NCBI RefSeq assembly: GCF_002354895.1
Contig: NZ_CP023439.1
Span: 930,001-994,000 of the forward strand
From: Thauera sp. K11
GTDB taxonomy: Bacteria; Pseudomonadota; Gammaproteobacteria; Burkholderiales; Rhodocyclaceae
Length of the DNA: 64,000 nucleotides
Reading direction: 5' to 3'
Below are positions 49,401 through 64,000 of this stretch, in pieces. The notes below the pieces were generated by a model. It did no database searches. It was given only the letters and a program-made list of their open reading frames with translations, and was not told the origin of the DNA. Made by a program: the position numbers and the translations under genes. How positions within the stretch are numbered: the first letter of the stretch is position 1; the number at the start of each line of letters is the position of its first letter.

Positions 49401-51378
49401 CGACGATCTGATGCCGGGCCGGACGCTGCTGCAGATCCTGCGCCATCTGGACGTCACGCACGTCACCCTGCCGCCCTCGGCCCTGCCGCTGCTCGCCGCC
49501 GAACGCATGCCCTTCGCGCCGTCCACGCTGATCGTGGCCGGCGAGGCGGTGTCGCCGAAGGACGCGAACGCGTGGTCCGGCGCCCTGCGGCTCATCAATG
49601 CCTACGGGCCGACGGAGACGACCGTCTGCGCCACGACGCACGTGTGCGCTCCGGACCCCGGGGCCACGATCGTGCCGATCGGCAGGCCGATCGCGAACAT
49701 GCGCGTGTATCTGCTCGACGCGGACCAGCAGCCGGTCCCCGCCGGGGCGGTGGGCGAGATCTGCATCGGCGGTGTCGGCGTGGCGCGCGGTTACCTGAAC
49801 AAGCCTGCGCTCACGTCCGAGTGCTTCCTTCCCGATCCGTTCGCGGCGCAGCGGGACGGCAGCGGCGGCGACCGGATGTACCGCACGGGCGACCTTGGAC
49901 GCTGGCGCGGGGACGGCACGATCGAGTATCTCGGCCGCAGCGACTTCCAGGTCAAGATCCGCGGTTTCCGCATCGAACCCGGCGAGATCGAGGCGCGCCT
50001 GGCTGCGCATCCGGCGGTGCGGGAGGTTCGCGTCGTGGTGCGCGAATCGGCCAGCGGCGACGCCACCGACAAGCGCCTCGTGGCGTACTACGTCGGGACG
50101 GCGAGCGTCGAGGAGGTTCGTGCGCTCGCCACCGCCAGCCTGCCGCGCCACATGCTGCCCGCGGCGTATGTGTGCATGGAGCGCCTGCCCCTGACGCCGA
50201 ACGGCAAGCTGGATCGCAAGGCCCTGCCGGTACCGGAAGGCGAAGCCTTCGGCCGCCGCGCCTACGAGGCGCCGCAGGGAGAAGTGGAAGTGGAGCTGGC
50301 CGCCATCTGGACGGCCGTGCTGGGCGTGGAGCAGGTGGGGCGGCACGACAACTTCTTCCAGATCGGCGGCCATTCGCTGCTCGCGGTGCAGCTCATCGCC
50401 CACGTGCGCAAGCGCTTCGAGATCGAGCTGCCGCTGTCGGAGCTGTTCCTGCGGCCCACGCTGACCGAACTGGCCGCCAGCATCGAGGCCGGCAGGATGG
50501 CCGCGCTCGGTGCCAGCCTCCTGATTCCGCTGCGCACCGGCGGCAGCGCGATACCGTTGTTCTTCATTCACGCGCTTGAAGGAAACGTTGGGTACGCTGC
50601 CGATCTCGCACGCTGGGTAAACCCGGATGTGCCGGTGTTCGGGCTCGTCGCCAGCGGGTTGAACAAGGGCGAGGAACCATTGCGGAGCGTCGAGGCGATG
50701 GCCGCGCGGTACATCGACGAGATGCTTCGCGTGCAGCCGCAGGGGCCGTACCGGATCGCGAGCTGGTCGGCGGGCGGGCAGGTGGCGTACGAAATCGCGC
50801 ATCAGCTTGCCGCCCGCGGCGAGACCGTGGGTTTCGTCGGCCTGATCGACACGATGTTCAGGGTGACCGCGCTGTCGGACGAGATGCGCAAGTGGCATGG
50901 GCGCGAGCGCGCCGGTCAGGCGCCGCGGGAAGAGCGCGAACGCGCGATGCTGCTGGTGAATCTGCAGCACGTGCTCAACGTTCCGCCCAAGCGCGTCAAG
51001 GAGTTGGCCCAGTTGGGAAGCGTGCCCGAGATCCTTGCCGCGATGGTCGGCGGGGGCGACGACGACCTTTTCGAAATCGAGACGTACGAGCGACACAACG
51101 CGATGCAATGTGCCTTTGTCGAAGCAATCGATGACTATGACCCGCCTGCCGCGACGGTGCCGGTGGTCCTGTTCGCGGCGAGCAAGTCGCAGCGCAAGGA
51201 TGCCTCCCTCGGCTGGCGGCCGCTCGTGGGAGAGCGCCTGCGGGTGGTATCGATCAAGGGCGATCACCAGTCGATATTGCAGGAGCCTCGCATCGCGGAG
51301 CTGGGAGCCGCGCTGTCGCTTGCCCTGCAGCGCCATGGCGAGACGGAGCCTGCCTTGACGGCCGGCGAACCCGCATGA
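37252..51378 (+). CDS. Non-ribosomal peptide synthetase 3, four modules with terminal thioesterase
   Basis: This 4708-residue terminal synthetase reads TubC-dock | CE-A(Val)-T | C-A(Leu)-T | CE-A(Ser)-T | CE-A(Tyr/Phe)-T-TE. It would receive the chain from NRPS-2, add the last four residues and release the product. The start is GTG 37252, preceded by GAGGAG and overlapping the NRPS-2 stop. The stop TGA 51376-51378 overlaps the ATG of the efflux gene (ATGA). The first C domain is dual C/E (HHLVTEEGD), so the Thr loaded by NRPS-2 is expected to become D-configured (D-allo-Thr). A thioesterase at the end makes this the chain-releasing enzyme. The frame is intact throughout. Confidence 0.97.
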   Translation: MTLETLFRDLDEKNIQVLLENDELVIRAPRGAMDAELAARLRTHKGDLLAFLKEAPRETGAAAGRRPFRITPEMLTLVSLTQDEIDRVVATVPGGAGNVQDIYPLAPLQEGILFHHLVTEEGDPYLLPSLLAFPRRERLERFLAALQRVVDRHDILRTGLAWEGLPEPVQVVRRKAALPVEHLQIDPADGDAVQQIEARFDPRHARLDLTQAPMLACHVAEDAANGRWLLHILAHHLAIDHTTLELLVEEAELIEQGRESELPVPVPFRNFVAQARLGVSQEEHETFFRQMLEDITEPTAPFDILDIQGNGGDIHEASEAVPEDVARAIRRIARTLGVSAASMMHLAWAVVLARLTGRQDVVFGTVLFGRMQGGESADRVLGMFINTLPIRLSVDQESVETRLKDVHALLARLLRHEHAPLSLAQRCSGVQPPAPLFSTLLNFRHAGGAAADLPDTGPAAADAAQDRDGDFEVLSGHERTNYPLTFSVDDLGEGFLLTAQVSRPLEAARVCSFMQSALSGLVEALSSHPQAPLSGVGVLPASERAQVVQGWNATSYAYPRESGVGELFAQMAQSTPSAPAVLDGERTLSYAELDAWSNRLAHALLDAGLQAGEAVALSLPRSAELVVAELAVLKAGGAYLPLDTVLPGERQALMAQDAGVRLLIGRAGEAAAAELSGLQRLDADGEALSSQPSGTPEVRTGGDALAYVMYTSGSTGRPKGVEILHRGIVRLVRNNGYAAFGAGDRVALAANPAFDASTLEVWAALLNGGAVVVIDQDTLLDPQRLAGALGDRAVSVLWLTVGLFNQYERVLGPVLPGLRYLIIGGDALDPRVVRKVLREHRPQHLLNGYGPTESTTFAITHEIESLAEEAASVPLGRPIGNTRIYILDGHGQPVPIGVAGELYIGGDGVARGYLNQPELTAERFVADPFATVAEGEAPARMYKTGDLGRWLADGTIEYLGRNDFQVKVRGFRIELGEIEAHLAQAADVSDVVVIARADGDTDTKYLVAYYVGEAAAEALRAHAGDGLPSYMVPSAFVRLARLPLTPNGKLDRAALPAPEGDAFVRRGYEAPQGEVEQTLARLWSELLGVAQVGRHDNFFELGGHSLLAVQLVSRLRSEVALELSLSELFDTASLSELAARIEARRAAGEAGAVLEAIGRADRAAPLPLSLAQQRLWFLGRLGGASEAYHIAGAVALEGELDAAALAQALWRVRARHEALRTRFGVDGQGQPVQVIDGPDSALAWHTEDLSGLAGEAQDAALQASLGSEASAPFDLERGPLLRARLMRLGEGHHVLSLCMHHIISDGWSIGVLLDELSTQYGACVAGEDDPLPALAVQYADYAAWQRQWLSGGALAAQQAYWQATLSERPRLLSLPLDHARPAQQDYRGDTVPVWLPEALTQRLQALAQREGVTLYMVLLASWGVLLGRLAGQDEVVIGTPVAGRTRQEVEGLIGFFVNTLALPVDLRAAGAGEGQDEGAGEGPDTRDLLARVKAQVLGAQAHQALPFEQVVDLVQPPRSLSTTPLFQAVLAWQNTPEGELSLPGLTLRPLASPQATAQFDLTLNLMPLEGGVGGGLNYATALWSRATMERMVGGWQVLLEAMLSQPEVAVSRLAILPEAERAQVVDGWNATHRPYALEQGTARLIEAQAARTPQAVALQQDETSLTYAELDARANRLAHHLRTLGVGPDVRVAVCLGRSVELVVAELAVLKAGGAYVPLDPAYPGERLAYMLEDCEPGVILTDGGLEAELQTLIAIAAARHEPALPVLDLRQDGAWRGLPEGAVTVAGLRPHHLAYVIYTSGSTGRPKGVMIEQRSLNNLIGWHIERFGLEAGSRSSCTAGVAFDACAWETWPVLAAGGTLLLAPAASEGDPQALLAWWQSQALDVSFLVTPLAEHALAHGQANGGVRSLLIGGDRLRRWPSGLPSGQALVNNYGPTENTVVASSGTLSADGVLHIGRPIGNTRIYILDGHGQPVPIGVAGELYIGGDGVARGYLNQPELTAERFVADPFATATAGNPAPRMYKTGDLGRWLSDGTIEYLGRNDFQVKVRGFRIELGEIEAHLAQAADVSDVVVIARADGADDTQHLVAYYVGEAAADALRTHAGDGLPSYMVPSAFVRLARLPLTPNGKLDRAALPAPEGDAFVRRGYEAPQGEVEQTLARLWSELLGVAQVGRHDNFFELGGHSLLAVSLIERMRQAGLQADVRALFTSTSLAELAASVGAGPARIEVPPNGIPADGSAGRITPEMVTLAALTQDELDRLVAQVPGGVRNVQDIYPLAPLQEGILFHHLMAEDGDPYLLPSVYGFRQREAVSRFVDTVQQVIGRHDILRTAVYWEGLSQPVQVVQREARLELVELDASDFGTADLAAALEARFDPQHTRLDLGHAPLLRAHLVEDARNGRWLLHILAHHLAIDHTTLELLVEEAELIEQGREAELPAPVPFRHFVAQARLGVSQEEHEAFFTQMLGDIDEPTAPFGLTEALGGLDEHHVLLPRTLAQAVRAQARRLGVSAASLMHLAWSLVLARTTGREDVVFGTVLFGRMQGGEGADRVMGMFINTLPVRLGVGEAGVEAALRQTHERLAQLLRHEHAPLALAQRCSAVQTPAPLFTSLLNYRHSAVAVGDAAADGVPAEGGNDVESLGASERTTYALTLTVDDLGEDFVLGAQVMEAPLAARVCGFMQRALEVVAAALERDPQQALRALDVLPASERTQVLEGWNATARDYPAGRCLHELIEAQADRTPQAVAVRQDGASLTYAELNARANRLAHHLRTLGVGPDARVAVCLGRSVELVVALVAVLKAGGAYVPLDPGYPGERLAYMLGDSAPAVVLADAVGREALDGAGLAGRIVIDPGADAAAWAAAPADNLSPQEIGLDARHLAYVIYTSGSTGQPKGAMNEHRGIVNRLVWMQEEYGLTADDAVLQKTPFSFDVSVWEFFWPLMTGASIVVARPDGHRDPAYLRREICASGVTTLHFVPSMLQLFLESEGVGECAAVVRRVMCSGEALPASLVRRFHERLPGVELHNLYGPTEAAVDVTYWACEPGAEGQGIPIGRPVANTRIYILDESLRPAPVGVAGELFIAGVQVGRGYLNREELTAERFVSDPYDPDPAARMYKTGDLARWTAEGVIEYLGRNDFQVKIRGLRIELGEVEASLAGCPGVQDVVVLAREDQAGDKRLVAYYVGEADIEALRGHASESLPQYMVPAAFVRLESMPVTPNGKLDRAALPAPEGGAVLHRGYAAPQGPIEEVLARLWAEQLGLERVGRNDNYFELGGHSLMAVSLIERMRMEGLHADVRALFAAPTLADLAQAVGSVSREVAVPPNLIPADGSAVRITPEMVTLAEPTQEELDALAAQVPGGVGNIQDIYPLAPLQEGILFHHLLAEEGDPYLLRSLYSFATRERLDSVLEALQRVIDRHDILRTGIYWEGLAQPLQVVLRDARLPVEWIALDPADGDLEQQLEARFDPQHACIDLAEAPLLRCHVVEDAAAGRFLLHVLAHHLIIDHTTVDLLLDEAQAIEAGQEAALPEPVPFRNFVAQARLGVSREEHEAFFRGMLGDVDEPTAPFGLMDVQGQGDIAEARLVLDDALADSLRRRTRALGVSLASLMHLAWALVLARTTGRRDVVFGTVLFGRLQAGAHAERMLGMFINTLPVRIRVTTQGVEHCLRQTHGLLAQLLRHEHAPLALAQRCSGVDAQMPLFTSLLNFRHTPIEAATGGDDAAGQEGSAPAGRDDVEELGASERSNYPFGICVDDLGLAIVLTAQVRGSIAPQRICALLETALRELAHALQEAPLAPLAGLDVLPAQEREQGLSGWDGTAQPEPEQHFLHELFEAQVARDPERIALAWRDGRMSYGQLNERANRLAHYLRNNGVEPESRVAICAERGPALVGALLAVLKAGGAYVPLDPAYPPERLAYMIEDCEPHAILTCGGPAREALARAGVSAERLFDLDADAWRWAPASTDNLPRRVVGLTPRHLAYVIYTSGSTGQPKGVMNEHRGLSNLVAAQMSAFGIDSTSRVLQFASPSFDASVSEIGTALGSGASLCLASSDDLMPGRTLLQILRHLDVTHVTLPPSALPLLAAERMPFAPSTLIVAGEAVSPKDANAWSGALRLINAYGPTETTVCATTHVCAPDPGATIVPIGRPIANMRVYLLDADQQPVPAGAVGEICIGGVGVARGYLNKPALTSECFLPDPFAAQRDGSGGDRMYRTGDLGRWRGDGTIEYLGRSDFQVKIRGFRIEPGEIEARLAAHPAVREVRVVVRESASGDATDKRLVAYYVGTASVEEVRALATASLPRHMLPAAYVCMERLPLTPNGKLDRKALPVPEGEAFGRRAYEAPQGEVEVELAAIWTAVLGVEQVGRHDNFFQIGGHSLLAVQLIAHVRKRFEIELPLSELFLRPTLTELAASIEAGRMAALGASLLIPLRTGGSAIPLFFIHALEGNVGYAADLARWVNPDVPVFGLVASGLNKGEEPLRSVEAMAARYIDEMLRVQPQGPYRIASWSAGGQVAYEIAHQLAARGETVGFVGLIDTMFRVTALSDEMRKWHGRERAGQAPREERERAMLLVNLQHVLNVPPKRVKELAQLGSVPEILAAMVGGGDDDLFEIETYERHNAMQCAFVEAIDDYDPPAATVPVVLFAASKSQRKDASLGWRPLVGERLRVVSIKGDHQSILQEPRIAELGAALSLALQRHGETEPALTAGEPA
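37459..40690 (+). other. NRPS-3 module 1: dual C/E - A(Val) - T
   Basis: The dual C/E domain (HHLVTEEGD, HHLAIDH) is diverged from the homogenised copies. The A domain (from 38914, SYAYPRES) is the common Val type with code DALWIGGTFK. The carrier is the QLVSRLR type before an LCL domain, so an L-Val is predicted. Confidence 0.86.
40741..43935 (+). other. NRPS-3 module 2: C - A(Leu) - T
   Basis: An LCL C domain (HHIISDG) is followed by the common Leu A domain (from 42145, code DAWFLGNVVK). The carrier is the SLIERMR type before a dual C/E domain, so a D-Leu is predicted. Confidence 0.87.
43981..47200 (+). other. NRPS-3 module 3: dual C/E - A(Ser) - T
   Basis: The C domain has HHLMAEDGD. The A domain (from about 45415) starts as a copy of the Z-type domain, then changes at about 45717 (after GERLAYML) into a diverged core. 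The code reads DVWHMSLVDK, close to the serine code DVWHLSLIDK. The carrier (DNYFELGGHSLMAVSLIERM) precedes a dual C/E domain, so a D-Ser is predicted. Confidence 0.85.
47254..50510 (+). other. NRPS-3 module 4: dual C/E - A(Tyr or Phe) - T
   Basis: The dual C/E domain has HHLLAEEGD and HHLIIDH. The A domain (from about 48706) has code DASTIAAVCK, an aromatic code closest to tyrosine/beta-hydroxytyrosine domains; phenylalanine is the alternative. The carrier is DNFFQIGGHSLLAV. This residue is the C-terminus of the chain. Confidence 0.8.
50524..51350 (+). other. Type I thioesterase domain of NRPS-3
   Basis: This alpha/beta-hydrolase fold begins at IPLRTGGSAIPLFFIHALEG. The nucleophile elbow reads SWSAGGQVAYE, so the usual first Gly of GxSxG is Ser. 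The catalytic His is in GDHQSIL near the end. It should release the peptide by hydrolysis or by attack of an internal hydroxyl. Only one thioesterase domain is present. Confidence 0.88.
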
Positions 51379-52976
51379 ACCGCACGTATCGGCGGGGAAC
51401 GGGCCTGTTCGCGCTTTGCGCCCTGGCGCTGGCGGGGGGCTGCGCCACGGTCGGGCCGGACTACCGGACGCCCGATCCCGGCGCGGCGGGCGTGCCGGAG
51501 CAATGGTCCGCCAGCCTGCCCGAGGGGGAACGGCTGCTCGAACTGAGGAACTGGTGGAGCCAGTTCGGCTCTCCCACCATGGCCGGCCTCATCGACGAGG
51601 CGCTCGAGACGAGCCCCTCCATGGATGCGGCACTGGCGCGCGTCGCGCAGGCCCGTGCCGGCGTGGGCATGGGGATGGCGGCGCTGTTGCCGAAGATCGG
51701 CGTCACGGGGGGCATCGGGCGCGGGCGTTCGAACGAAAAGACCTCGCTGCGCGGCGCCCGCGTCGACACCGACACCGATACCGGTGCCAGGGACGTGCTG
51801 CATGGTCAAGTGGGAACGTTCGAAGGTTCGCTGCTGACGACGCGCAGCCTGTCGACCGACATGAGCTGGGAGATCGACCTCTTCGGCGGACGCCGGCGCA
51901 GCCTGGAAGGGTCGCGGGCGACGTTCGAGGCTCGTCGCGCCGAATGGCGCGGCGCCCGCGTCACGCTGGCGGCCGAGGTCGCGAACGTCTACGTGCTGCG
52001 GCGCCATTGCGAAGGGTTGCTGGCGGTGGCCGACGCAGACCTGGTGTCGCGCACGGAAACGCATCTCCTGACCTTGCAGAAGCGGGACGCGGGATTCGTG
52101 ATCCCGGCCGATGCCGACCGGACGGAAGCGTCGGTGGCGGAGGCGCGCAGCGTCCGGTCCGGCCTGGAAGCCGAATGCACGCAGTACCAGAACCAGTTGG
52201 TCGCGCTGACGGGGCTTCCCTACGGCGAGATCGGGTCGCGGCTGGCGGCCGACCGCGCGAGCCTGCCCACGCCGCCGGACGGAGCCCTCCCGGTCGTGCC
52301 GGCGGAAGCGATTTCGCAGCGGCCGGACGTCGCCGTCAGCGAACGCGTGCTGGCCGCGGCCAGCGCCGACATCGGCGTGGCGAAGGCCGCGGCACTGCCG
52401 TCGATCACGCTCATCGGCTCCATCGGCGTGAACGTGGGCCGCGGCGGCAAGCGCGACACGACCGGGTACAACGGCATCGAGGCGCAGTCGAACAGCGGCA
52501 GCTACCGGGTGACGACCCGCTCCTGGTCGTTCGGTCCCTCGATCTCGCTGCCGCTGTTCGACGGCGGCAAGGCGGCGGCCGACATCGCGTTCGCCAAGGC
52601 CGCGTTCGAGGAAGCCTCCGCGGCGTACCAGAGCAGCGTCCGCAACGCCGTGATGGAGGTGGAGAACGCCCTGGTGCGCGTCGACTCCGCGAGCAGCCGG
52701 CTGAGCGACATCGGGCGCGCGCACGACGGCTATACGCGCTTTTTCGAGGCGACCGAAGCGCAGTACCGGGAGGGCGCGGCGAGCCTGCTCGCCCTCGAGG
52801 ACGCCCGCCGCGTCCTGCTCGCGAGCCGCCAGGCGCAGCTCGGCGAGCGGCTCGCGCAGTTGCAGGCATGGATAACGCTGTTCAAGGCCGTCGGCGGCGG
52901 TTGGCAAAGCGCCGAACCGCCGGCCGAACCGGAAACATTCAACCCTATCCCTCTGGCCACGTCGGCAATGGAATGA
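51375..52976 (+). CDS. NodT-type outer-membrane efflux lipoprotein
   Basis: This 533-residue member of the TolC/NodT outer-membrane factor family forms the exit duct of a tripartite pump. A signal peptide ends in a lipobox (ALAGGC, Cys23), followed by TVGPDYRTPD, the usual start of the mature NodT proteins. Two OEP repeats cover most of the rest; helical stretches such as AALARVAQARAGVGMG and ISQRPDVAVSERVLAAASAD are typical. Its ATG overlaps the stop of NRPS-3 and its TGA overlaps the next ATG, so it is translated as part of the same unit. Context suggests export of the NRPS peptide, but the substrate is not shown by sequence. Confidence 0.93.
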   Translation: MNRTYRRGTGLFALCALALAGGCATVGPDYRTPDPGAAGVPEQWSASLPEGERLLELRNWWSQFGSPTMAGLIDEALETSPSMDAALARVAQARAGVGMGMAALLPKIGVTGGIGRGRSNEKTSLRGARVDTDTDTGARDVLHGQVGTFEGSLLTTRSLSTDMSWEIDLFGGRRRSLEGSRATFEARRAEWRGARVTLAAEVANVYVLRRHCEGLLAVADADLVSRTETHLLTLQKRDAGFVIPADADRTEASVAEARSVRSGLEAECTQYQNQLVALTGLPYGEIGSRLAADRASLPTPPDGALPVVPAEAISQRPDVAVSERVLAAASADIGVAKAAALPSITLIGSIGVNVGRGGKRDTTGYNGIEAQSNSGSYRVTTRSWSFGPSISLPLFDGGKAAADIAFAKAAFEEASAAYQSSVRNAVMEVENALVRVDSASSRLSDIGRAHDGYTRFFEATEAQYREGAASLLALEDARRVLLASRQAQLGERLAQLQAWITLFKAVGGGWQSAEPPAEPETFNPIPLATSAME

Positions 52977-54157
52977 GCACCGCCATGATCACCACGACTG
53001 ACCTAGCAGCCCACCGCCCGCATACCCGGGCGGCACCTTTCCGTTCATTGTTGCTCGCCGCCTTGCCGATGCTGGCGGCGGTGGTCCTGAGCGCATGCGA
53101 CGAGGCGGTTTCTTCGGTGCCATCCGAGGCGGCGCCGAAGCCGGCGCTGACCGTTTCGCTGATCACGCCGCAGCAGCAGGAATGGACCGAGCGCCTCCAT
53201 GCCAGCGGAAACATCCAGCCTTGGCAACTGGTGAGCATCGGCGCCGAGATCAGCGGCGTCCGCGTCGTCGAGGTACCCGTCAAGGAAGGGGACTCCGTAC
53301 GCAAGGGGCAGTTGCTGGCGCGCCTGGACGACGCCAGCGTCACCGTCGAGCTGAATCTTCAGCGCGCGGTCCTCGCCGAGGCCGAGGCCAATCTCGCGCA
53401 GGCGCAACTGTCGCTGGAGCGGGCGCGCAAGCTGGATGTCTCGCGGGCGATCAGCCTGCAGGATCTTCTGCAGTACGAGACCGCGGCCAAGACCGGCGCG
53501 GCCAAGGTGGCCATCGCCCAGGCGCAGGTGAAGGCGCTCGAACTGCGCAAGCGCTACACCCGCATCGTCGCGCCGGACGACGGCGTCATCGCCATCAGCA
53601 GCGCCAGGGTCGGCGCCCTCAGCGAGGCCGAGGGTGACCTCTTCAAGCTCATCCGCAAGGGGCGCGTGGAGTGGCGGGCGGAACTCCGGCCGGAACAGCA
53701 GGCGAAGCTCCAGCCGGGACAGGGGGTCGAACTGCGCGATCCGCTGGGCAACGTCGTGCACGGGAGCGTGCGCCAGATCGCGCCGACGGCCGACCTGGAG
53801 TCGCGCATCTCGCTGGTCTATGTCGACGTCGAGCCGAGCACGGTCATCAAGCCGGGCGTGCTGGTGACCGGGGACTTCCTCGTCGATCGGCGTTCCGCGA
53901 CGACCATTCCCCGGGCTGCGCTGGTGATGCGCGACGGCTTCAACTACGTGATGAAAGTGGACGGCAGCGACATCGTCAAGCCGACCAAGGTGACCGTGGG
54001 CGGCCGGCGCGGCAACGACGTGGAACTGCTCGGCGGGCTGGGGCCGGACGACAGGATCGTCGCCAGCGGGGGCGCATTCCTCGACGAGGGCGACAAGGTG
54101 CGGGTGGTGCAGCAGCCCGGCGCGGATCAACCTCTCGCGGCGACGGATCGGCCATGA
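52973..54157 (+). CDS. RND efflux periplasmic adaptor lipoprotein (membrane fusion protein)
   Basis: This 394-residue adaptor of the AcrA/HlyD family links the RND pump to the outer-membrane factor. I chose ATG 52973 because it overlaps the previous stop as ATGA; ATG 52985 is an alternative. The signal peptide ends in a lipobox (VLSAC, Cys42), so it is probably lipid-anchored. The lipoyl/barrel-sandwich half-motif GNIQPWQLVSIGAEISGVRV is followed by a coiled-coil hairpin (ELNLQRAVLAEAEANLAQAQ and onward), the second half-motif RIVAPDDGVI and a beta-barrel ending near PRAALV. Its stop overlaps the RND gene start. Confidence 0.94.
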   Translation: MSTAMITTTDLAAHRPHTRAAPFRSLLLAALPMLAAVVLSACDEAVSSVPSEAAPKPALTVSLITPQQQEWTERLHASGNIQPWQLVSIGAEISGVRVVEVPVKEGDSVRKGQLLARLDDASVTVELNLQRAVLAEAEANLAQAQLSLERARKLDVSRAISLQDLLQYETAAKTGAAKVAIAQAQVKALELRKRYTRIVAPDDGVIAISSARVGALSEAEGDLFKLIRKGRVEWRAELRPEQQAKLQPGQGVELRDPLGNVVHGSVRQIAPTADLESRISLVYVDVEPSTVIKPGVLVTGDFLVDRRSATTIPRAALVMRDGFNYVMKVDGSDIVKPTKVTVGGRRGNDVELLGGLGPDDRIVASGGAFLDEGDKVRVVQQPGADQPLAATDRP

Positions 54158-57100
54158 ACTTCTCGGCGTGGTCCATCCGCCGGCCGATCCCGGCCCTGCT
54201 TCTCTTCGCCGTCCTGACGATCGGCGGCCTGTTCGGCTTCAACCGCATGCAGATCCAGGATCTGCCGGACATCGAACTGCCGGCGATCACCGTCGGCATC
54301 GTGTTTCCCGGCGCGACGCCGACGCAGATGGAGACCGAGGTCACGCGCAAGATCGAGTCCTCGCTCGCGAACCTGGGCATGGTCGAGCACATCTCGACGA
54401 CGGTCATCGAAGGGGCCTCCGAGACGACGATCACGTTCCGCATCGACAAGGACATGCGCGATGCGATGGAGGAGGTGCGCAACGCGGTCTCGTCCGTGCG
54501 CGGGAGCCTGCCCGCCGACGTGCGCGACCCGTTCATCGCGCGGGTGAAGACCTCCGGTTCGCCGATCCTCACCTTCGCGGTGGAATCCGGGACGATGGAC
54601 GAAGTCGATCTGTCGTGGTTCGTCGACGATACCGTCGGCAAGGCGCTCATGACGGTTTCCGGCATCGGCTCGGTCATGCGCCATGGCGGCGTCCGGCGCG
54701 AGATCCTCGTGGAACTGGACCCGACCCGGCTGCAGTCGATGAACGTGACGGTGGCCGACGTGGCGCAGCAGATCCTGCTGGTCCAGCAGGATGCTGCCGG
54801 AGGGTACGGCAAGGTGGGCGGAGGCGAGCAGTCGCTGCGTTCGGTGGGGCTCGTGGGGTCGGTCGCCGACCTCGCGGCGCTGCCGATCCCGCTGGGCGCC
54901 GGCCTGCACAGCGTGCGCCTCGGCGATCTGGCGAGCGTGCGCGACGGCGTCTCGGAACGGCGCAACATGGCCTTGCTGGACGGCCGCGGGATCGTCAGCT
55001 TCCAGGTGATCAAGGCGCAGGGCACGAGCGAAGTCACGGTGGCGAACGACATCCGCGCCGCCGTTCAGGCGCTGCGGGACAAGTATCCGGCGGTCACGAT
55101 CACGGAGGTCGGCGACACCGTCGCGTTCACTTCCGAGCAGTACGAGACCTCCATGCGCGCGCTCTACGAGGGCGCGCTGCTGACGGTGGTGGTGGTGTGG
55201 CTGTTCCTGCGCGACCGCCGCGCGACCATGATCTCGGCGATCGCGCTGCCGCTTTCCATCATCCCGACGTTCCTCGTGATGTATCTGCTCGACTACACGC
55301 TGAACACGGTGACGCTGCTGGCGCTGACGCTCGTCGTCGGGGTGCTGGTAGACGATGCGATCGTGGAGGTCGAGAACATCGTTCGCCACGTCAGGATGGG
55401 GAAGACGCCCTTCCAGGCGGCGCTCGAGGCGGCCGACGAGATCGGCATGGCGGTCATCGCCACGTCGTTCGCGCTGGTCGCGGTGTTCCTGCCGACGGCC
55501 TTCATCGGCGGCGTCTCCGGGCGCATATTCCAGCAGTTCGGATGGACCACGTCGGTGGCCGTGATCGGCTCGCTGGTGGTGGCGCGCCTGCTCACGCCCA
55601 TGATGTGCGCCTACCTGCTCCGGGCCCCGAAAGCGCTGCCCGAGCAGGCGCACGACGAAGCGGACGAGCCGGGCCGCCTGATGCGCGGCTACCTCGCGAC
55701 CGCCGCCTGGTGTCTCGCCCATCCGCTGAAGACCTGCCTCGCCGCGGGAGCGTTCTTCTTCGTTTCGCTGGTGCTTTCGTCTTCGCTGCCGGTGGATTTC
55801 ATCCCGGCCGACGATTCGCACGAGATCACGATCAACGTCACCGTGCCGCCGGGCGAGGATCTCGCCCACACGGCGTCCGTGGTCGAGGCGGCGCGCGTCG
55901 CGTCGATGCAGGAGCCCGAGGTGAAGAGCGTGTTTGCGTCGATCGGGATGGGTGCCCAGCTCGGCGGCGACAGCAACGGCGGCATCGGCGACGTGGATAC
56001 CGGCGTCATGCTGCTGTCGCTGCACGAGAAGCGCGACCGGACGCGCCAGCAGGTGGAGGATGCGCTGCGCAAGCGTCTGGCCGGCGTCCACGGCGCGCGC
56101 TTCTCGATCGGTTCCGGCGATGCCGGCGAGAGATACGCGGTGGTGCTGGCCGGCGACGATGCCGATCTGCTGCAGAAGACGGCATTCGAGCTTGCGCGCG
56201 AGATGCGCACCTTGTCGGGCTTCGGCAACGTGAACACCTCGGCCAGCCTGCTGCGGCCGGAGATCGTGATTCGCCGCGATCCGGTGCGCGCGTCGGACCT
56301 CGGGGTCTCGACGCTCGCCATCAGCCATGTCCTGCGCGTGGCGACCGGGGGGGACATCGACACCAACCTGTCCAAGCTCAACCTGCCGTCCCGGCAGGTG
56401 CCGATCCGCGTCCAGCTCGACGACAGGTCGCGCCACGATCTCGACACCCTGTCGCAGCTCCGCGTCCCGGCCAAGACGGGCACCGTCCCCCTCTCCAGCG
56501 TCGCGACGCTCGGCATCGAAAGCGGCCCCTCGCGCATCGACCGGCTGGATCGTTCCCGCTACGTCACCGTCGACGTCGAGCTGAACGGCCGGCCGCTCAG
56601 CGACGCGGCAAAGCTCGTGGACGCGCTGCCCGCCATGCAGAAGCTGCCGGGCGGCGTGACCCACATCGCCATCGGCGACCTCGAGGCGCAGCAGGAGCTG
56701 ATGTCGCACTTCGCGCTCGCCATCCTCGCCGGCATCCTGAGCGTGTACATCGTGCTCGTACTGCTGTTCAACGACTTCATGCAGCCCGGCACCATCCTGT
56801 CGGCGCTTCCATTGTCCGTCGGGGGCGCGTTCGCGGCATTGTGGATGCTGGATTTCGGGTTCTCGATGCCCTCCATGATCGGCATCATCATGCTGATGGG
56901 CGTGGTGACGAAGAACTCGATCCTGCTCGTGGACTACTCCATCATGGCGCAGCGCGATCACGGCATGCCGCGGGTCGAGGCGATCCTCGACGCCTGCCGC
57001 AAGCGGGCGCGCCCGATCGTCATGACCACCGTCGCGATGGTCGCGGGGATGCTGCCGATGGCGGTCGGCCTGCAGGGCGATCCCAGTTTCCGTGCGCCGA

Positions 57101-57303
57101 TGGCGGTGGTCGTCATTGGCGGCCTGCTGTCCTCGACCTTCCTGAGCCTGCTGGTGGTCCCCGTCGTCTACGAACTCGTGGACGGCCTGCAGGCACGCAT
57201 CCGGGGCTGGTTCGCAAAGCATCCCAGCCCGCCGGGCCGCACCCTTGCACCCGCCGCTGCGGGCGGCCCGCGTCCGTCATCCGATTCCTTCACACAGGAC
57301 TGA
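54154..57303 (+). CDS. RND family efflux transporter, inner-membrane pump
   Basis: This 1049-residue transporter has the standard RND length and layout: a first membrane helix after MNFSAWSIRRPI, a large periplasmic loop, helices 2-6, a second loop and the last helices. The proton relay is intact: the Asp pair in GVLVDDAIVEVENI (residues about 400-401) and the Lys in GVVTKNSILLVDY (about residue 920). The periplasmic porter motif FPGATPTQMETEVTRKIE is also present. It is the last gene of an ATGA-coupled chain NRPS-3, NodT, adaptor, RND. The neighbourhood resembles lipopeptide clusters in pseudomonads that carry their own RND exporter, so peptide secretion or self-protection is the likely role. 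Confidence 0.95.
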   Translation: MNFSAWSIRRPIPALLLFAVLTIGGLFGFNRMQIQDLPDIELPAITVGIVFPGATPTQMETEVTRKIESSLANLGMVEHISTTVIEGASETTITFRIDKDMRDAMEEVRNAVSSVRGSLPADVRDPFIARVKTSGSPILTFAVESGTMDEVDLSWFVDDTVGKALMTVSGIGSVMRHGGVRREILVELDPTRLQSMNVTVADVAQQILLVQQDAAGGYGKVGGGEQSLRSVGLVGSVADLAALPIPLGAGLHSVRLGDLASVRDGVSERRNMALLDGRGIVSFQVIKAQGTSEVTVANDIRAAVQALRDKYPAVTITEVGDTVAFTSEQYETSMRALYEGALLTVVVVWLFLRDRRATMISAIALPLSIIPTFLVMYLLDYTLNTVTLLALTLVVGVLVDDAIVEVENIVRHVRMGKTPFQAALEAADEIGMAVIATSFALVAVFLPTAFIGGVSGRIFQQFGWTTSVAVIGSLVVARLLTPMMCAYLLRAPKALPEQAHDEADEPGRLMRGYLATAAWCLAHPLKTCLAAGAFFFVSLVLSSSLPVDFIPADDSHEITINVTVPPGEDLAHTASVVEAARVASMQEPEVKSVFASIGMGAQLGGDSNGGIGDVDTGVMLLSLHEKRDRTRQQVEDALRKRLAGVHGARFSIGSGDAGERYAVVLAGDDADLLQKTAFELAREMRTLSGFGNVNTSASLLRPEIVIRRDPVRASDLGVSTLAISHVLRVATGGDIDTNLSKLNLPSRQVPIRVQLDDRSRHDLDTLSQLRVPAKTGTVPLSSVATLGIESGPSRIDRLDRSRYVTVDVELNGRPLSDAAKLVDALPAMQKLPGGVTHIAIGDLEAQQELMSHFALAILAGILSVYIVLVLLFNDFMQPGTILSALPLSVGGAFAALWMLDFGFSMPSMIGIIMLMGVVTKNSILLVDYSIMAQRDHGMPRVEAILDACRKRARPIVMTTVAMVAGMLPMAVGLQGDPSFRAPMAVVVIGGLLSSTFLSLLVVPVVYELVDGLQARIRGWFAKHPSPPGRTLAPAAAGGPRPSSDSFTQD

Positions 57304-58608: not shown

Positions 58609-59289
58609 TCAGGCCGCGGGCTCGTACAGCCGCTTCTCGATCGCGATGCTGCCCTTCAGCCGGTGCAGGGTCTTCGCGGCGGCGAGGACGGCGAGGTCGA
58701 CGAGGGGTTCGAGGATCACGACGCTCATGTAGGCCGCGCCGAAGCTGGCGACGTTCTGCAGGTTTTCGGCGCCCATGCCCTGGCCGTAGAAGGCCCAGAA
58801 GGCGACCCACGCGACGATGCCTCCCTGGTACGCGACGGAAAGCTTGAGAGCCTGGGCGTAGCGGATGTCCACGTAGGCGGTGTCGGCCGGGATGATGCGG
58901 CGGGCGAGCGCGGCGGTGGCGAAGAGCGGCACCAGCAGGGTGGTGACGTTGATGCCGTACTGGGGCAGGTCGAAGGGCGCGAAGAAGAGGCCCTGGGTGA
59001 GCAGGCCGGCGGCCAGCCCGATGGCGGCCGGCGCGGCGCCGAAGAGCAGCAGCAGGGTGGAGCCGAGGATCAGGTGCACTTCGGAGACGCCCACCGGGTG
59101 GTGGGGCAGGACTTCGAAGAAGCTGAACACCAGGACAGTGGCGATCGCCGCGCGCAGGGCGAGGGATGCGGCGCCGTCGCGCCTGATGGTGCCGAAGGCG
59201 AGCTTCGCGGTGTAGCCCAGGGCGGCGGCGGCGGTGCCGTAGCTCAGCAGGAGCTTGGCTCCTTCGACGATTCCGGGTTCGATGTGCAT
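58609..59289 (-). CDS. cbiM: CbiM-type energy-coupling factor permease (cobalt/nickel uptake)
   Basis: This 226-residue integral membrane protein belongs to the CbiM/NikM family, the substrate-binding component of cobalt or nickel ECF transporters. It starts Met-His-Ile; in this family the N-terminal His2 takes part in metal binding. The core GVSEVHLILGSTLLLLFG and DLPQYGINVTTLLVPLFA are strongly family-like. About six hydrophobic segments are visible. ATG 59289 has AGGAG (59298-59302) eight bases upstream. It lies 54 bases after the VWA frame and probably shares its transcript. No CbiN, CbiQ or CbiO is visible, so partner proteins must be elsewhere if it is an ECF transporter. Confidence 0.82.
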   Translation of the reverse strand: MHIEPGIVEGAKLLLSYGTAAAALGYTAKLAFGTIRRDGAASLALRAAIATVLVFSFFEVLPHHPVGVSEVHLILGSTLLLLFGAAPAAIGLAAGLLTQGLFFAPFDLPQYGINVTTLLVPLFATAALARRIIPADTAYVDIRYAQALKLSVAYQGGIVAWVAFWAFYGQGMGAENLQNVASFGAAYMSVVILEPLVDLAVLAAAKTLHRLKGSIAIEKRLYEPAA

Positions 59290-59343: not shown

Positions 59344-60018
59344 TCACCGGCCGCCCGCCGCGGCCAGGCTGCGGGCGGACACGCAGTCCGCATCCCATGC
59401 GTGCGCGAGACGCCGCGCGCGGCCGAGGGCGGCGGGGCCGTCGTCGAAATCGATCACCGTGCAGTGGTCGGCATGCAGCGGACGCGGCGGCAGTTCGGCG
59501 AAGCGCGCGTCCGACAGCAGCCACAGCGCGATGCGCCCGCCCGGCGTGCGGCGCCTGTGCTGCGCCAGCAGCCGGTCGGCCAGGGCCACCGCCGAGGCCG
59601 CCGGCGTTCCGCCGCCGCCGGCGATGGCGGCGATCCAGCCTTCGTTGAAGGCCACCGCCTTGCGCGGCGGCTGCAGTACGTGCGCGGTACTGCCCGCAAA
59701 GCCGATCACCGCGAGCGCTTCGCGGCGCCGGTAGATGCGCGAGGTCCACGCCAGCAGCAGGCCCTTGGCGAGTGCCAGGCGCCGGCCGCGCAGCATGGAG
59801 GCGGAGCAGTCGAGCAGCAGGCAGTGCAGGGTGGCGCTGCCGGCCGGCGGCGGACGGTGGCGCAGATGGCCGCGGCCGAGCCGCGCCGTGCCCTTGGCGG
59901 CAAGCGTGCGTGGCCAGTCGATGCGCAGGCCCGGCAGGCGGGCCGGCCGGCCTTTGCGGGAGGGATTGCCGACGCGTCCGGCGGCGCCCCGGCCGGGCGC
60001 CGCCGGACGCGTCAGTAC
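59344..60018 (-). CDS. chlD: VWA (MIDAS) chelatase domain, -1 frame extension of chlI
   Basis: This frame encodes about 224 residues of a von Willebrand A domain like that of ChlD/BchD-type chelatase subunits. The metal-ion-dependent adhesion site is complete: LLLDCSASM (DxSxS), the Thr in GGGGTPAAS and the Asp in LLSDARF. Family-like sequence already begins at [12 protein letters not shown]. Between the chlI stop and the VWA core there is no ATG, GTG or TTG in frame. The nearest candidate is a GTG at 60090 inside chlI without a clear ribosome site. The most likely expression is by -1 frameshifting from chlI at 60018-60024, giving a fusion of about 565 residues. A separately initiated protein from GTG 60090 is the alternative. 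Confidence 0.82.
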
Positions 60019-60039
60019 TTTTTTGCATGCAGCGGCCTC
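59971..60039 (-). promoter_or_regulatory. Predicted programmed -1 ribosomal frameshift cassette
   Basis: In mRNA order: GAGG (60039-60036) as an internal Shine-Dalgarno-like element; 11 bases; the slippery heptamer A-AAA-AAG in the chlI frame (60024-60018); TAC; the chlI stop TGA (60014-60012); and a perfect 19-bp stem with 5-base loop (arms 60013-59995 and 59989-59971). Spacer from heptamer to stem is four bases. The layout matches the E. coli dnaX signal. A -1 slip leads directly into the VWA frame (GTA CTG ACG). Confidence 0.85.
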
Positions 60040-61040
60040 ACGTTCTTGACGGCCTGGATGGGTACGGCCTGCGGCGGCAGTGCGCCCCACTCGGCGTCGT
60101 CCGCCGGCGGCGGCGCGGCGTCGGACCGCGGTTGTGGTTGCGCCTGCGGGGTGTCGTGCGGGGGCTCGTCCGTCTTCCGCCGGTGGGCGAGCACGAGTTC
60201 GGCCACCGCATCGATGTCTCCATCCTCGATGCGGGTGCGGCCGTCGAGCGCCGCGTGGGCGCGGGCGGCGCGCAGCATGACGAGGTCGGCGCGCACGCCC
60301 TCGACCGCGGCGGCATGGCACAGCGCCGCGACCCGCTGGTGGCTGGCGTCGTCGAAATCCACGGCGGGCAGGGTGGTGCGCGCGGCGGCGATGCGTGCGG
60401 CGAGCGCGCGCTGCGCGGGCTCGAGGCGCGCGGCGAAGGCGGCCGGATCGGCGTCGAAGGCCAGCCGCGCACGCACGATGGCTTCGCGCCCGGCGGGAGG
60501 CAGGGTGTCTCCCAGGCGCACGAAGAGGCCGAAGCGGTCCAGCAGTTGCGGCCGCAGTTCGCCTTCTTCCGCGTTCATGGTGCCGACCAGGGTGATGCGC
60601 GCCGGATGGGCGTGGCTGATGCCGTCGCGCTCGATGCGGTTCACGCCGCTCGCGCAGACGTCGAGCAGCAGGTCGACCAGGCCGTCCGCGAGCAGGTTGA
60701 CCTCGTCCACGTAGAGCACGCCCTCGTGCGCGCGGGCGAGCAGGCCGGGGTGGAAGCGCACCTGGCCGTCCTGCAGCGCGGCTTCGAGGTCGAGCGAGCC
60801 GACGAGCCGTTCCTCGCTGGCGGACAGCGGCAGGTTTACGAAGCGCCCGCCCGGCAGCAGGGCCGCGAGCGCGCGCGCCGCGGTGGATTTCGCGGTGCCG
60901 CGGGGGCCTTCGACGAGCACGCCGCCGATCAGCGGATCGACGGTGGCGATGAGCAGCGCGGTCTGCAGCAGCGGCTGGCCGTGCAGCGCGGTGAAGGGGA
61001 AGGCCGGCGGGAATGCGGCTTCGTGCGGGCTGTCGTTCAT
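60012..61040 (-). CDS. chlI: Chelatase AAA+ ATPase subunit (ChlI/BchI-like), cobalt chelatase partner
   Basis: This 342-residue AAA+ ATPase resembles the I subunit of magnesium/cobalt chelatases and would drive metal insertion by CobN. Walker A is GPRGTAKST (residues 45-53), Walker B is [11 protein letters not shown], and the sensor/arginine region reads [20 protein letters not shown]. The C-terminal 45 residues are low-complexity, rich in Pro, Gln and Asp. ATG 61040 overlaps the cobN stop as ATGA. It ends HAKKY at TGA 60014-60012, immediately after a slippery heptamer, so a fraction of ribosomes is expected to continue into the VWA frame. The short product and the long fusion would then be two subunits of one chelatase. 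Confidence 0.93.
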
Positions 61041-64000
61041 CGTTCTTCCAGATGCCGCTCGGCGGCGAGCAGGTGCTGCTCGATGCGTTCGCGGTAGTCG
61101 CCGGGCTGCTGCCACAGGCCGCGGTCCATGGCTTCGAGCAGGCGTTCGCAGATCTCGCCCAGCGCGTCGGGGTTGTGGCGCTGGAGGAAATCGCGGGTGT
61201 CGGGGTCTTCCAGGTAGGCGTCGGCCACGCGGGCGTACTGGTCGTCGCGCACCACGCGGGCGGTGGCGTCGAAGGCGAAGAGGTAGTCCACGGTGGCCGC
61301 CATCTCGAAGGCGCCCTTGTAGCCGTGGCGCTTCACGCCGGCGATCCATTTCGGATTGGTCGCGCGGCTGCGCACCACGCGGCTGATTTCCTCTTCCAGC
61401 GAGCGGATCGCGGGTGAGCCGGGGTTGCTGTGGTCGCCGAAGTACATCGCCGGCCGGGTGCCGCCGAAGTGGCGCACCGCCGCGGCCATGCCGCCCTGGA
61501 ACTGGTAGTAGTCGTCGGAGTCGAGCAGGTCGTGCTCGCGGTTGTCCTGGTTGTGCATCACCAGTTCGATGCCCGCCAGCCGGCGTGCGAAGGTGGTCCG
61601 CGCCTCGCTGCCGTAGTCGTCGCGGCCGTAGGCGTGGCCGCCCCATTCCAGGTAGGCGCGGGCGAGGTCGGCGTCGCCGTCCCAGTGGCGGCCGTCGATG
61701 AGGCCCTGCAGGCCGGCGCCGTAGGCACCCGGCCTGGCGCCGAACACGCGGTGGCCGGCATGGCGGCGGGCGTCGGCGTCCGCCATGCCTTCGGCCCGCA
61801 GGGCGGCGGTCTCGCGCAGGATGCGGGCGCGGATCGGGTTGACGTCCTCGGGCTCGTCCAGCCCGGCGACCGCCTGCACCGCGGCGTCGAACAGGCGGAT
61901 GACGTTGGCGAAGGCGTCGCGGAAAAAGCCGGATACGCGCAGCGTCACGTCGATGCGCGGGCGGTCGGACAGCGACATCGGCAGGATCTCGAAGTCCGCC
62001 ACGCGGTGGCTGCCGTCCGACCACTTGGGGCGCACGCCGATCAGCGCGAACGCCTGGGCGATGTCGTCGCCGCCGGTGCGCATGGTGGCGGTGCCCCACA
62101 CCGACAGGCCGATGGCGCGCGGGTAGTCGCCGTGCTCCTGGACGTAGCGCTCGACCATGCGCGCGGCCGAGCGCTGGCCCAGTGTCCAGCTCGTCCGCGT
62201 GGGCACGGCGCGGGTGTCGACCGAGTAGAAATTGCGTCCGGTGGGCAGCACGTCGGGGCGGCCGCGGGACGGCGCGCCGCTCGGGCCGGGCGGCACGAAG
62301 CGCCCGGCGAGTCCGCGCATGAGCTGGTGCAGTTCCTGTTCGCCGCAGGCGTCCAGCCGCGGGCGCAGTTCGCCGTCGATGCGTTCCAGCACCGCGCGGG
62401 TGTGTTCCCAGCGGATGCCGGCTGCCGGCAATCCGGCTTCCAGCACGTCGAGCGCGAGGAGTTCGAGGCGTTCGCGGGTGTCGCCGGCGTTGCGCCAGGG
62501 GCTCGGGTCGACGGCCGCGAGCACTGCCGGGCGCGGTCCCTGCCAGGGCTGGCTCCAGTCGGCATCGAGCGGGTCGAAGTCCGCGCCCAGGGCGAGGTCG
62601 GCGGCCAGTGCGCGGGTCAGGCCCTGGCTGGGGCCGCGGCCGTCGCCCACCGGGTGCCGGGCGAGCGCGAGCAGGGTGTCGCGGCGCAGGCGCCCCGCGG
62701 GCGAGGTGCCGAAGACGTGCAGGCCGTCGCGGATCTGCGCTTCCTTGAGTTCGCACAGGTAGGCGTCGGTGCGGTTCAGCAGCAGTTGCTCTTCTTCGGC
62801 GGTGGCGGGCGGCGCGAGGCCGAGGTCGCGGTGCAGGTCGTGGCGCAGGATGTGGTCGAGGATCTGCCGCCGCAGCAGTCCGGCGCGGTTCCCGTCCAGC
62901 ATCAGCGCTTCGTAGTACTCGTCCACCTGGCGTTCGAGATCGCGCGTGGGGCCGTAGCTTTCGGCGCGCGTCAGCGGCGGCATCAGGTGGTCCACGATCA
63001 CCGCCTGGGCGCGGCGCTTGGCCTGCGTGCCTTCGCCGGGGTCGTTGACGATGAAGGGGTAGAGATGGGGCATGGGGCCGAACGCGAGGTCCGGCCAGCA
63101 TTCCCCGGACAGCGCCACGCTCTTGCCCGGCAGCCATTCGAGGTTGCCGTGCTTGCCGACATGCACGATGGCGTCGCAGCGCCACGCCTCGCGCAGCCAG
63201 CAGTAGAAGGCGAGGTAGTGGTGCGGCGGCACGAGGTCGGGGTCGTGGTAGCTCGCCAGCGGGTCGAGCTGGTAGCCGCGCGCGGGCTGGATGCCGACGA
63301 AGATCTGGCCGCAGCGCAGGCCGGCGAGCATGAAGCGGCCCTGGCGCAGCATCGGGTCGGCGTGCGGCTCGCCCCAGCGCGCGACGATGGCCTCGCGGCT
63401 GGCCGCCGGCAGGCGTGCGAAGAAGGCGAGGTAGTCGGCCAGCGCCAGGCTCTGGCGCGCGGGGCGCAGCGCCCAGTGCCCGGGATCGTTGGTGATGCCT
63501 TCCTTGAGCCGTTCCATCAGCGCGTCGCCGTGCGCGGGGATGTCGGCGACGGCGTAGCCTTCGGCGCGCAGGCGTTCGAGGATCGCGATCACCGAGGCCG
63601 GGGTGTCCAGCCCCACGCCGTTGCCGAGCCGGCCTTCGCGCGTGGGGTAGTTGGCGAGGATCAGCGCGAGGCGCTTGTCCGCCTCGGGCAGCGCCCGCAG
63701 CCGGCACCAGCGCCGCGCGAGTTCGGCGACGAACGCCATGCGGCCGGGCTCGGGGCGGTACTGCACGACGTCGCTCTGGGTGCGCTCGCAGTGGTGGTCG
63801 AGGCCCTTGAAGCTCACCGCGCGGGTGATGATGCGGCCGTCCACCTCGGGCAGCGCGATGTGCATGGCGATGTCGCGCGGCGCGAGGCCGTGGGCGTCGG
63901 CACGCCACGCCGCCTCGTTGCCGCCGGAGAGCACGAGCTGCAGCACGGGGATGTCGCCCGCGAGGGCGTGGTCGCCGGGCTCGTCGAGCGCCGATTGCGA
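61037..64000 (-). CDS. cobN: Cobaltochelatase CobN subunit (N-terminus beyond window)
   Basis: This is the C-terminal 987 residues of CobN, the large porphyrin-binding subunit that inserts cobalt into hydrogenobyrinate a,c-diamide in aerobic cobalamin synthesis. Recognisable motifs are [34 protein letters not shown] (the conserved H-motif of CobN/BchH), [20 protein letters not shown] and [20 protein letters not shown] near the end. The frame is open to base 64000 ([12 protein letters not shown] reads through the first codons), so the start lies outside. CobN proteins are usually about 1250-1400 residues, so roughly the first 250-400 are missing. Its stop overlaps the chlI start by four bases. 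Confidence 0.96.

What the first reader, a model, noticed from the sequence alone, without database searches (positions are those of the whole stretch)
59971..60039. Complete programmed -1 frameshift signal joining chlI to a start-less VWA frame
The chlI frame ends GCA AAA AAG TAC TGA, where A-AAA-AAG is the canonical bacterial -1 slippery heptamer. GAGG lies 11 bases upstream and a perfect 19-bp hairpin begins four bases downstream. The -1 frame has no stop and runs into a VWA domain with an intact MIDAS. No ATG, GTG or TTG occurs in that frame between the stop and the VWA core, although family-like sequence ([12 protein letters not shown]) starts well before it. One gene could therefore give a 342-residue ATPase and a fusion of about 565 residues, matching the small and medium subunits a cobalt chelatase needs. 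Layout equals E. coli dnaX. I recall that frameshifting in chlD-type chelatase genes has been reported, so the principle may be known; this locus would be a particularly clean case.
Basis: partly seen in the sequence, partly recalled or inferred. Interest (0 to 1): 0.9.

Follow-up and report, generated by a model that had tools for sequence, protein, structure and literature searches.

The report
Frameshifted chelatase gene makes two subunits
This bacterial gene carries a conserved slippery sequence that is predicted to yield both motor subunits of a likely cobalt-inserting enzyme from one message; the trick is already published, but here the marker genes searched for building the vitamin B12 ring were not found in the genome, so the enzyme likely serves salvaged corrinoids.

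Summary
The only AAAAAAG in 64 kb lies at the end of chlI, in phase as A-AAA-AAG. GAGG sits 11 nt upstream, and the window's only perfect short-loop stem above 12 bp starts 4 nt downstream. The -1 frame encodes a VWA domain with an intact MIDAS. Among 58 frameshift-type loci (window included), 57 have A-AAA-AAR one codon before the zero-frame stop; in 29 of 57 the -1 frame has no start codon before the conserved DW motif. In the Thauera/Azoarcus group the hairpin covaries, and GAGG is kept by a rare AGG codon (7 of 9). The genome has one cobN, no cobS, no cobT and no other ChlD-grade locus.

The principle is published (Antonov 2013, 2020; Kuznetsov 2022; 10-63% frameshifting measured in relatives): a new member of a known kind. 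Two additions: the dnaX-like upstream element, and apparent orphan status. This genome, like 6 of 8 other carriers in that group, lacks the ring marker CbiC/CobH, and no corrin-ring methyltransferase was recognised in it. Yet a cobalamin riboswitch, BtuF-like and BtuC-like transporters, CobW and CbiM surround the chelatase. Its substrate there is an open, testable question.

The parts
61037..63946 (-). cobN, large chelatase subunit (runs out of the window; match over the full gene G000:C1:991058-994807)
   Evidence: PF02514 1223 bits; TIGR02257 over cut-off, 1588 bits over model positions 1-1225; its stop overlaps the chlI start as ATGA
60012..61040 (-). chlI zero frame, 342-aa AAA+ ATPase (predicted small subunit)
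   Evidence: TIGR02442 396 bits, TIGR02030 299 bits, AAA_lid_2; the NCBIfam scores are below the full-length cut-offs, as expected for half of the two-part model TIGR02442
60036..60039 (-). GAGG, internal Shine-Dalgarno-like element 11 nt upstream of the heptamer
   Evidence: the only one of 26 conserved Arg columns that uses AGG
60018..60024 (-). slippery heptamer A-AAA-AAG
   Evidence: only copy in the window; A-AAA-AAR in phase in 58 of 58 frameshift-type loci, most of which were selected for an A-run near the stop
60012..60014 (-). zero-frame UGA stop, one codon after the heptamer
   Evidence: same distance in 57 of 58 loci
59971..60013 (-). downstream stimulatory hairpin, 19 bp, 5-nt loop
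   Evidence: compensatory changes in relatives
59344..60018 (-). -1 frame: linker and VWA domain, 224 codons (predicted C-terminal part of the 565-aa medium subunit)
   Evidence: PF13519 VWA_2 30.8 bits (cut-off 27); TIGR02442 positions 460-583
59797..59811 (-). MIDAS motif DCSAS (D-x-S-x-S)
58609..59289 (-). CbiM-family cobalt uptake component downstream of the chelatase gene
   Evidence: PF01891 59.7 bits, over the Pfam cut-off, NCBIfam CbiM models below theirs; same position in relatives

Best explanation
This is a frameshift-type chlD gene in a cobN operon: a conserved A-AAA-AAG heptamer with a GAGG upstream and a 19-bp hairpin downstream is predicted to make a fraction of ribosomes slip back one base, so that one message would likely give both the 342-residue AAA+ ATPase and a 565-residue ATPase-VWA protein that act with CobN as a likely cobalt chelatase. 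Shown: the anatomy, its conservation, hairpin covariation in the nearest group, purifying selection on both frames, and that searches found no other small or medium subunit gene. Inferred: that slippage happens here, at what rate, and that the two products form the motor of the chelatase. The operon also holds a cobalamin riboswitch, BtuF-like and BtuC-like genes, CobW and CbiM, and this genome has CobB, CobQ, CbiB and CobD but no recognised corrin-ring methyltransferases. The chelatase therefore probably inserts cobalt into a corrinoid taken up from outside rather than one made in the cell; that last step is inference.
For: Heptamer, GAGG and hairpin verified. Of 80 related loci, 54 have the VWA in the -1 frame with an A-run at the ORF end and 15 are in-frame fusions. 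A-AAA-AAR in phase in 58 of 58 and stop exactly one codon later in 57 of 58 (selection caveat under evidence against). No ATG/GTG/TTG in the -1 frame from its previous stop to the conserved DW motif in 29 of 57 loci, including the closest relative G143. AGG at the GAGG site in 7 of 7 Arg-bearing sequences of 9, against no AGA/AGG codon in the other 25 conserved Arg columns. Hairpin: 5 of 18 counted pairs changed on both sides, 88.6% of cells paired against 35-44% when slid. dN/dS about 0.26 for chlI and 0.40 for the -1 frame, window against G143. One cobN, no CobS, no CobT, no second ChlI/ChlD-grade locus. Published reporter assays of three homologous cassettes gave 63, 40 and 10% (PMC3711429, passages).
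Against: No measurement exists for this locus. The window's -1 frame has two upstream GTG codons (60090 and 60321), without an SD-like sequence by my script; in 14 of 57 loci, all Pseudomonas or Stutzerimonas, a start codon recurs 24 codons before the zero-frame stop, 11 of them behind an SD-like sequence, so separate initiation is not excluded there. Loci counted as frameshift-type were mostly chosen by having an A-run near the stop, so the 58 of 58 is partly built in; the fairer count is 54 of 55 loci whose best VWA hit is in the -1 frame (53 with the standard stop spacing), the exception being a VWA about 1.2 kb downstream. GAGG is missing in G057 and A. indigens (2 of 9 in the group) and in Pseudomonas-type loci, so it is not essential to the family. 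Downstream folding with z below -2 was seen in 27 of 58 loci. The outermost A-U pair of the stem fails in 5 of 8 sequences. The apparent absence of the ring pathway makes the chelatase function less certain here than in Pseudomonas.
Confidence: 0.92

Rival explanations
1. The VWA protein is translated on its own, from GTG 60090 or GTG 60321 or by re-initiation after the UGA, and the heptamer is incidental.
For: Both GTG codons lie in the open -1 frame. 28 of 57 loci have at least one ATG/GTG/TTG before the DW motif; in 14 Pseudomonas/Stutzerimonas loci one recurs at codon -24, 11 of them behind an SD-like sequence.
Against: 29 of 57 loci, including the closest relative G143, have no start codon in the whole available stretch. 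The window's GTGs have no SD-like sequence by script, and none of the other eight Thauera/Azoarcus-type loci has a start at the place of GTG 60090. The conserved heptamer, stop spacing and hairpin would be unexplained.
Confidence: 0.04
2. The shift comes from RNA polymerase slippage on the A-run, not from the ribosome.
For: A. indigens has a 10-A run and no GAGG, the kind of run that PMC3711429 (passages) associates with transcriptional realignment.
Against: The window and 48 of the other 57 loci have only 6 A; a conserved hairpin and a GAGG at ribosome-type spacing point to translation. That 6 A are too few for polymerase slippage is recalled.
Confidence: 0.03
3. The frame break is a sequencing error or a decayed gene.
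For: A homopolymer lies exactly at the break.
Against: The same break in dozens of separately sequenced species; dN well below dS in both frames.
Confidence: 0.005
4. The frameshift is real but the enzyme is a relic or acts on something other than a corrin, since the host seems to have no ring synthesis.
For: No CobI over cut-off, only four TP-methylases (two SUMT, RsmI, an RsmI-like protein), no CbiC. PMC6461909 (passage) notes cobalt-chelatase annotations in bacteria lacking most corrin genes. A CobN homologue, HmuS, removes iron from heme (PMC12583661, listing and passages).
Against: CobN is full length at 1588 bits, both frames are under purifying selection, and four ring-less relatives (G143, G033, G130, G154) keep BtuF-like, BtuC-like, CobW, CobN, ChlI/VWA and CbiM in order, three of them with a cobalamin riboswitch upstream.
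Confidence: 0.25

Closest known systems
fs-chlD, frameshifted 'magnesium chelatase' genes (Antonov 2013 PMC3711429; Antonov 2020 MBE, not held; Kuznetsov 2022 PMC9227772)
   Same: Same domains, same -1 shift at A_AAA_AAR, same partner cobN, same proposed purpose: small and medium subunits from one gene; reported in Pseudomonas, Burkholderia, Delftia, Herpetosiphon and archaea (passage)
   Different: The parts I read do not mention Thauera or Azoarcus, nor an upstream SD-like element in this gene; the 2022 stage 8 describes B12 producers, whereas in this genome the ring pathway was not found
E. coli dnaX -1 frameshift signal
   Same: SD-like element, A-AAA-AAG heptamer and downstream hairpin in the same order (PMC3711429, Figure 1 legend)
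   Different: In dnaX the shifted product is the shorter one; here it would be the longer
CobNST cobaltochelatase of the aerobic B12 pathway
   Same: CobN large subunit, AAA+ and VWA partners, CobW next to cobN (PMC7689651, passages)
   Different: No CobS or CobT; ChlI/ChlD-type partners from one gene; no ring synthesis genes found
HmuS/BtuS CobN-like dechelatases
   Same: CobN-type protein in an organism not using it for de novo B12
   Different: Here AAA+/VWA partners, CobW, CbiM and a cobalamin riboswitch accompany CobN, pointing to cobalt and corrinoid

Membership tests
fs-chlD (programmed -1 frameshift chlD) | ChlI-like AAA+ in the zero frame followed by a VWA domain in the -1 frame | tested here: met
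fs-chlD (programmed -1 frameshift chlD) | A_AAA_AAR slippery heptamer at the frame junction, conserved among homologues | tested here: met
fs-chlD (programmed -1 frameshift chlD) | Downstream RNA secondary structure | tested here: met
   weaker in many other loci, 27 of 58 with z below -2
fs-chlD (programmed -1 frameshift chlD) | Genome lacks a separate small subunit gene | tested here: met
   no CobS, no second ChlI; one remote AAA+ protein (29% identity, 28 bits) was not identified further
fs-chlD (programmed -1 frameshift chlD) | Measured frameshifting giving two products | not testable with these tools
   measured only in homologues (PMC3711429, passages)
Aerobic B12 cobaltochelatase (CobNST function) | CobN large subunit over the family cut-off | tested here: met
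Aerobic B12 cobaltochelatase (CobNST function) | CobS and CobT partners | tested here: not met
   none; ChlI/ChlD-type partners instead
Aerobic B12 cobaltochelatase (CobNST function) | Host makes the corrin ring (substrate supply) | tested here: not met
   no CobI/CbiL over cut-off, no ring TP-methylases recognised, no CbiC/CobH
[quoted passage not shown]
   needs purified proteins
dnaX-type three-part -1 signal | Internal SD-like element about 10 nt upstream, under selection | tested here: met
   GAGG at 11 nt; AGG codon test; absent in 2 of 9 group members and in Pseudomonas-type loci; the 10-nt yardstick is recalled

The most novel reading that the evidence does not exclude
A cobalamin-riboswitch operon that imports cobalt-free corrinoids and metallates them: the BtuF/BtuC-like transporter brings in hydrogenobyrinic acid or its diamide made by other microbes, CbiM and CobW supply cobalt, and CobN with the two frameshift products inserts it. 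That would define a salvage type of B12 auxotroph that starts exactly at the chelatase step, with motor stoichiometry set by a three-part frameshift signal.
Probability: 0.2. Interest if true: 0.72.

Novelty: new member of a known kind. Interest (0 to 1): 0.42.

Why it matters
As a frameshift case it is a clean three-part example that adds the Thauera/Azoarcus group and a group-specific upstream element, with a natural comparison: relatives with GAGG and 6 A against a relative with no GAGG and 10 A. More important, it shows the module kept under selection in genomes where I found no corrin-ring synthesis. It turns a loose note in the literature (chelatase annotations in bacteria lacking most corrin genes) into a defined operon with a testable substrate question, relevant to who supplies what in B12-exchanging communities.

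Tried and rejected
Independent start of the VWA, polymerase slippage and sequencing error were considered and ranked low (see rivals). A separate CobS/CobT or second ChlI/ChlD was searched for and not found. De novo B12 supply by the same genome was tested and not supported. Lack of VWA start codons is not a conserved trait by itself: among 45 loci where my first motif matched, 31 had none between the slip and it; over the full -1 frame 29 of 57 had none. My first frame arithmetic failed for loci with 7 or 10 A and was replaced. No structure prediction and no search of the large protein database was run: the comparisons above settled the question.

Papers: PMC9227772 read as parts 1-3 of 4 of the whole text; PMC3711429, PMC5009743, PMC12583661, PMC6461909, PMC11906303 and PMC7689651 seen as found passages only; Antonov 2020 not held, its content recalled and cited through PMC9227772. 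Statements on what I did not see in print rest on paper searches. PMC11906303 (passages) reports a Thauera bin as a de novo cobalamin producer, so ring loss is not a trait of the whole genus.

Full report
Observation. On the minus strand the chlI frame ends GCA AAA AAG TAC TGA. GAGG lies at 60036-60039, the heptamer at 60018-60024, the stop at 60012-60014 and a perfect 19-bp stem with a 5-nt loop at 59971-60013. AAAAAAG occurs once in the window against 0.26 expected. The stem is the only perfect one above 12 bp with a 3-8 nt loop. The -1 frame runs 224 codons to 59344, without a start codon after the zero-frame stop until ATG 59796, inside the MIDAS DCSAS. ChlI is 342 aa; a shifted product would have 341 + 224 = 565 aa.

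Identity. The zero frame is a ChlI-like AAA+ ATPase and the -1 frame a VWA domain; both fall on one model, TIGR02442 putative cobaltochelatase, at positions 88-336 and 460-583. Upstream, cobN overlaps chlI by ATGA and scores 1588 bits over model positions 1-1225. Downstream is a CbiM-family cobalt uptake protein. The whole genome (5.29 Mb, rated 100% complete, 2% contamination) has one cobN, no CobS, no CobT and no other ChlD-grade locus; the remaining ChlD-model hits score 41 bits or less.

Conservation. A scan of one genome per species with ChlI alone gave 80 loci, the best of 94. By frame they divide into 54 with the VWA in the -1 frame and an A-run at the ORF end, 15 in-frame fusions, and 11 others: L003, cut off by its contig but carrying the heptamer; 8 with no VWA hit by my query; 2 with a VWA over 1 kb away. 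The 54 plus the window, G143, G057 and L003 make 58. All 58 have A-AAA-AAR in phase and 57 have the stop exactly one codon later; the exception is L077. The A-run was part of the selection, so the fairer count is 54 of 55 loci with a -1-frame VWA, 53 with the standard spacing. Runs are 6 A in 49, 7 A in 7 and 10 A in 2. In 29 of 57 loci (L077 left out) no ATG, GTG or TTG exists in the -1 frame between its previous stop and the conserved DW motif, and 51 of 57 have no ATG there. Against this, 14 loci, all Pseudomonas or Stutzerimonas, share a start codon 24 codons before the zero-frame stop, 11 of them behind an SD-like sequence, and one Delftia locus has an SD-like start further up. In the window two GTG codons exist (60090 and 60321), neither with an SD-like sequence by script; G143, the closest relative, has none.

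Stimulators. In nine Thauera/Azoarcus-type sequences the hairpin is kept. The outer stem is almost invariant, the inner arm changes length, and 5 of 18 counted pairs show changes on both sides (8 cells); 88.6% of cells pair against 35-44% when the partner is slid. The structure came from the window, so the pairing percentage is favoured; the double changes are the stronger sign. The clearest is G057, where the C-G pair next to the stop has become G-C. The A-U pair outside it fails in 5 of 8 sequences. GAGG is read as GTG AGG: among 26 Arg columns kept in at least 7 of 9 chlI sequences, this is the only one with AGG (7 of 7 Arg), and no AGA or AGG occurs in the other 25. It is absent in G057 (CAG) and in A. 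indigens, which has 10 A instead. Two Burkholderia-group loci have it too, with 7 A. Pseudomonas-type loci lack it. Related sequences are not independent, so this is good but not absolute evidence of selection on the element. Across all 58 loci, folding z after the heptamer is below -2 in 27.

Selection. Window against G143: chlI dN 0.104, dS 0.403; -1 frame dN 0.124, dS 0.308. Both frames are under purifying selection.

Known work. Antonov and colleagues found this gene family computationally and measured 63, 40 and 10% frameshifting in three cassettes (PMC3711429, passages). The Atkins review describes it and leaves the metal open (PMC5009743, passage). [quoted passage not shown] Hence the finding is a new member of a known kind. 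Thauera and Azoarcus do not occur in the main text of PMC3711429, and I saw no upstream element described for this gene in what I read.

Surprise. The host seems not to build the corrin ring. CobI/CbiL: best 52.7 bits against a cut-off of 163. TP-methylases: four, namely two uroporphyrinogen methyltransferases and RsmI over their cut-offs and an RsmI-like protein below it. CbiC/CobH: none. Late genes are present: CobB (over the cut-off of PRK01077, below that of TIGR00379), CobQ, CbiB and CobD, plus BtuB-like, BtuC-like and BtuF-like transport genes that score below their NCBIfam cut-offs. CbiC/CobH was searched in 56 genomes: six G-genomes (one of them, G052, not checked for a frameshift) and those of 50 of 55 frameshift-type loci. 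45 have it. Within the Thauera/Azoarcus group 2 of 9 distinct carriers have it (G057 and T. linaloolentis). Of the ring-less genomes, L005 and L059 are metagenome bins and L080 a draft, of completeness unknown to me; G000, G143, G033 and G130 are rated 99-100% complete.

Operon. A cobalamin riboswitch lies upstream of the operon here. Of six relatives scanned, four have one upstream (G143, G057, G130, G154); in G033 the only one lies downstream of cbiM, the upstream end being cut by the contig; T. terpenica, with only 5 kb upstream held, shows none. Ring-less G143, G033, G130 and G154 keep BtuF-like, BtuC-like, CobW, CobN, ChlI/VWA and CbiM in order. In ring-positive G057 the riboswitch leads straight to cobW, with no BtuF/BtuC match in the 19.9-kb stretch: one data point, but in the direction of the salvage idea. 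Carriage is patchy: 12 of 150 family genomes have any ChlI match at 1e-30, five of these at 76% identity or more, and none of the three other same-genus genomes listed.

Interpretation. The frameshift reading is about as secure as comparison can make it. What the enzyme metallates in a ring-less host is open. CobNST takes hydrogenobyrinic acid a,c-diamide, and CobW supplies cobalt (PMC7689651, passages). CobB, CobN and CobQ without ring genes fit a salvager of cobalt-free corrinoids. CobB alone proves little, since it occurs in 46% of precursor salvagers (PMC6461909, passage). Relic status or another substrate remain possible.

Noticed in passing
window 61-51378 (+): Three very long ORFs (6887, 4763 and 4708 aa); the two stretches sampled (34190-37255 and 37252-40251) hold Condensation and AMP-binding domains, and short identical segments recur along the region, so this looks like a large non-ribosomal peptide synthetase cluster.
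   Followed up: partly
window 51375-57303 (+): Outer membrane efflux protein and AcrB-type RND transporter directly after the synthetase genes, plausibly its exporter.
   Followed up: partly
L103:2408-3607 (-), G000 upstream of cobW: DUF1636 protein between the BtuC-like gene and CobW, found in the same place in G143 and G130 but not matched in G033, G057 or G154.
   Followed up: no
L108:7884-11057 (-): In A. indigens the cobN match is split into two pieces in tblastn; I did not check whether this is an insertion or only a weak stretch.
   Followed up: no
L035 (Pseudomonas MAG): The -1 frame is longer than in its neighbours, with the MIDAS-like motif at residue 119 instead of 71 and sequence unlike theirs after the DW motif.
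   Followed up: no
L077 (Desulfofustis MAG), 212-1384: A 10-A run in a ChlI-like gene with the VWA in the -1 frame, but the zero-frame stop lies 21 nt later and no strong hairpin follows; possibly a separate frameshift design.
   Followed up: no
Pseudomonas/Stutzerimonas fs-chlD loci (for example L012, L033, L044): A start codon 24 codons before the zero-frame stop recurs in 14 loci, 11 with an SD-like sequence; separate initiation might add to frameshifting there.
   Followed up: no
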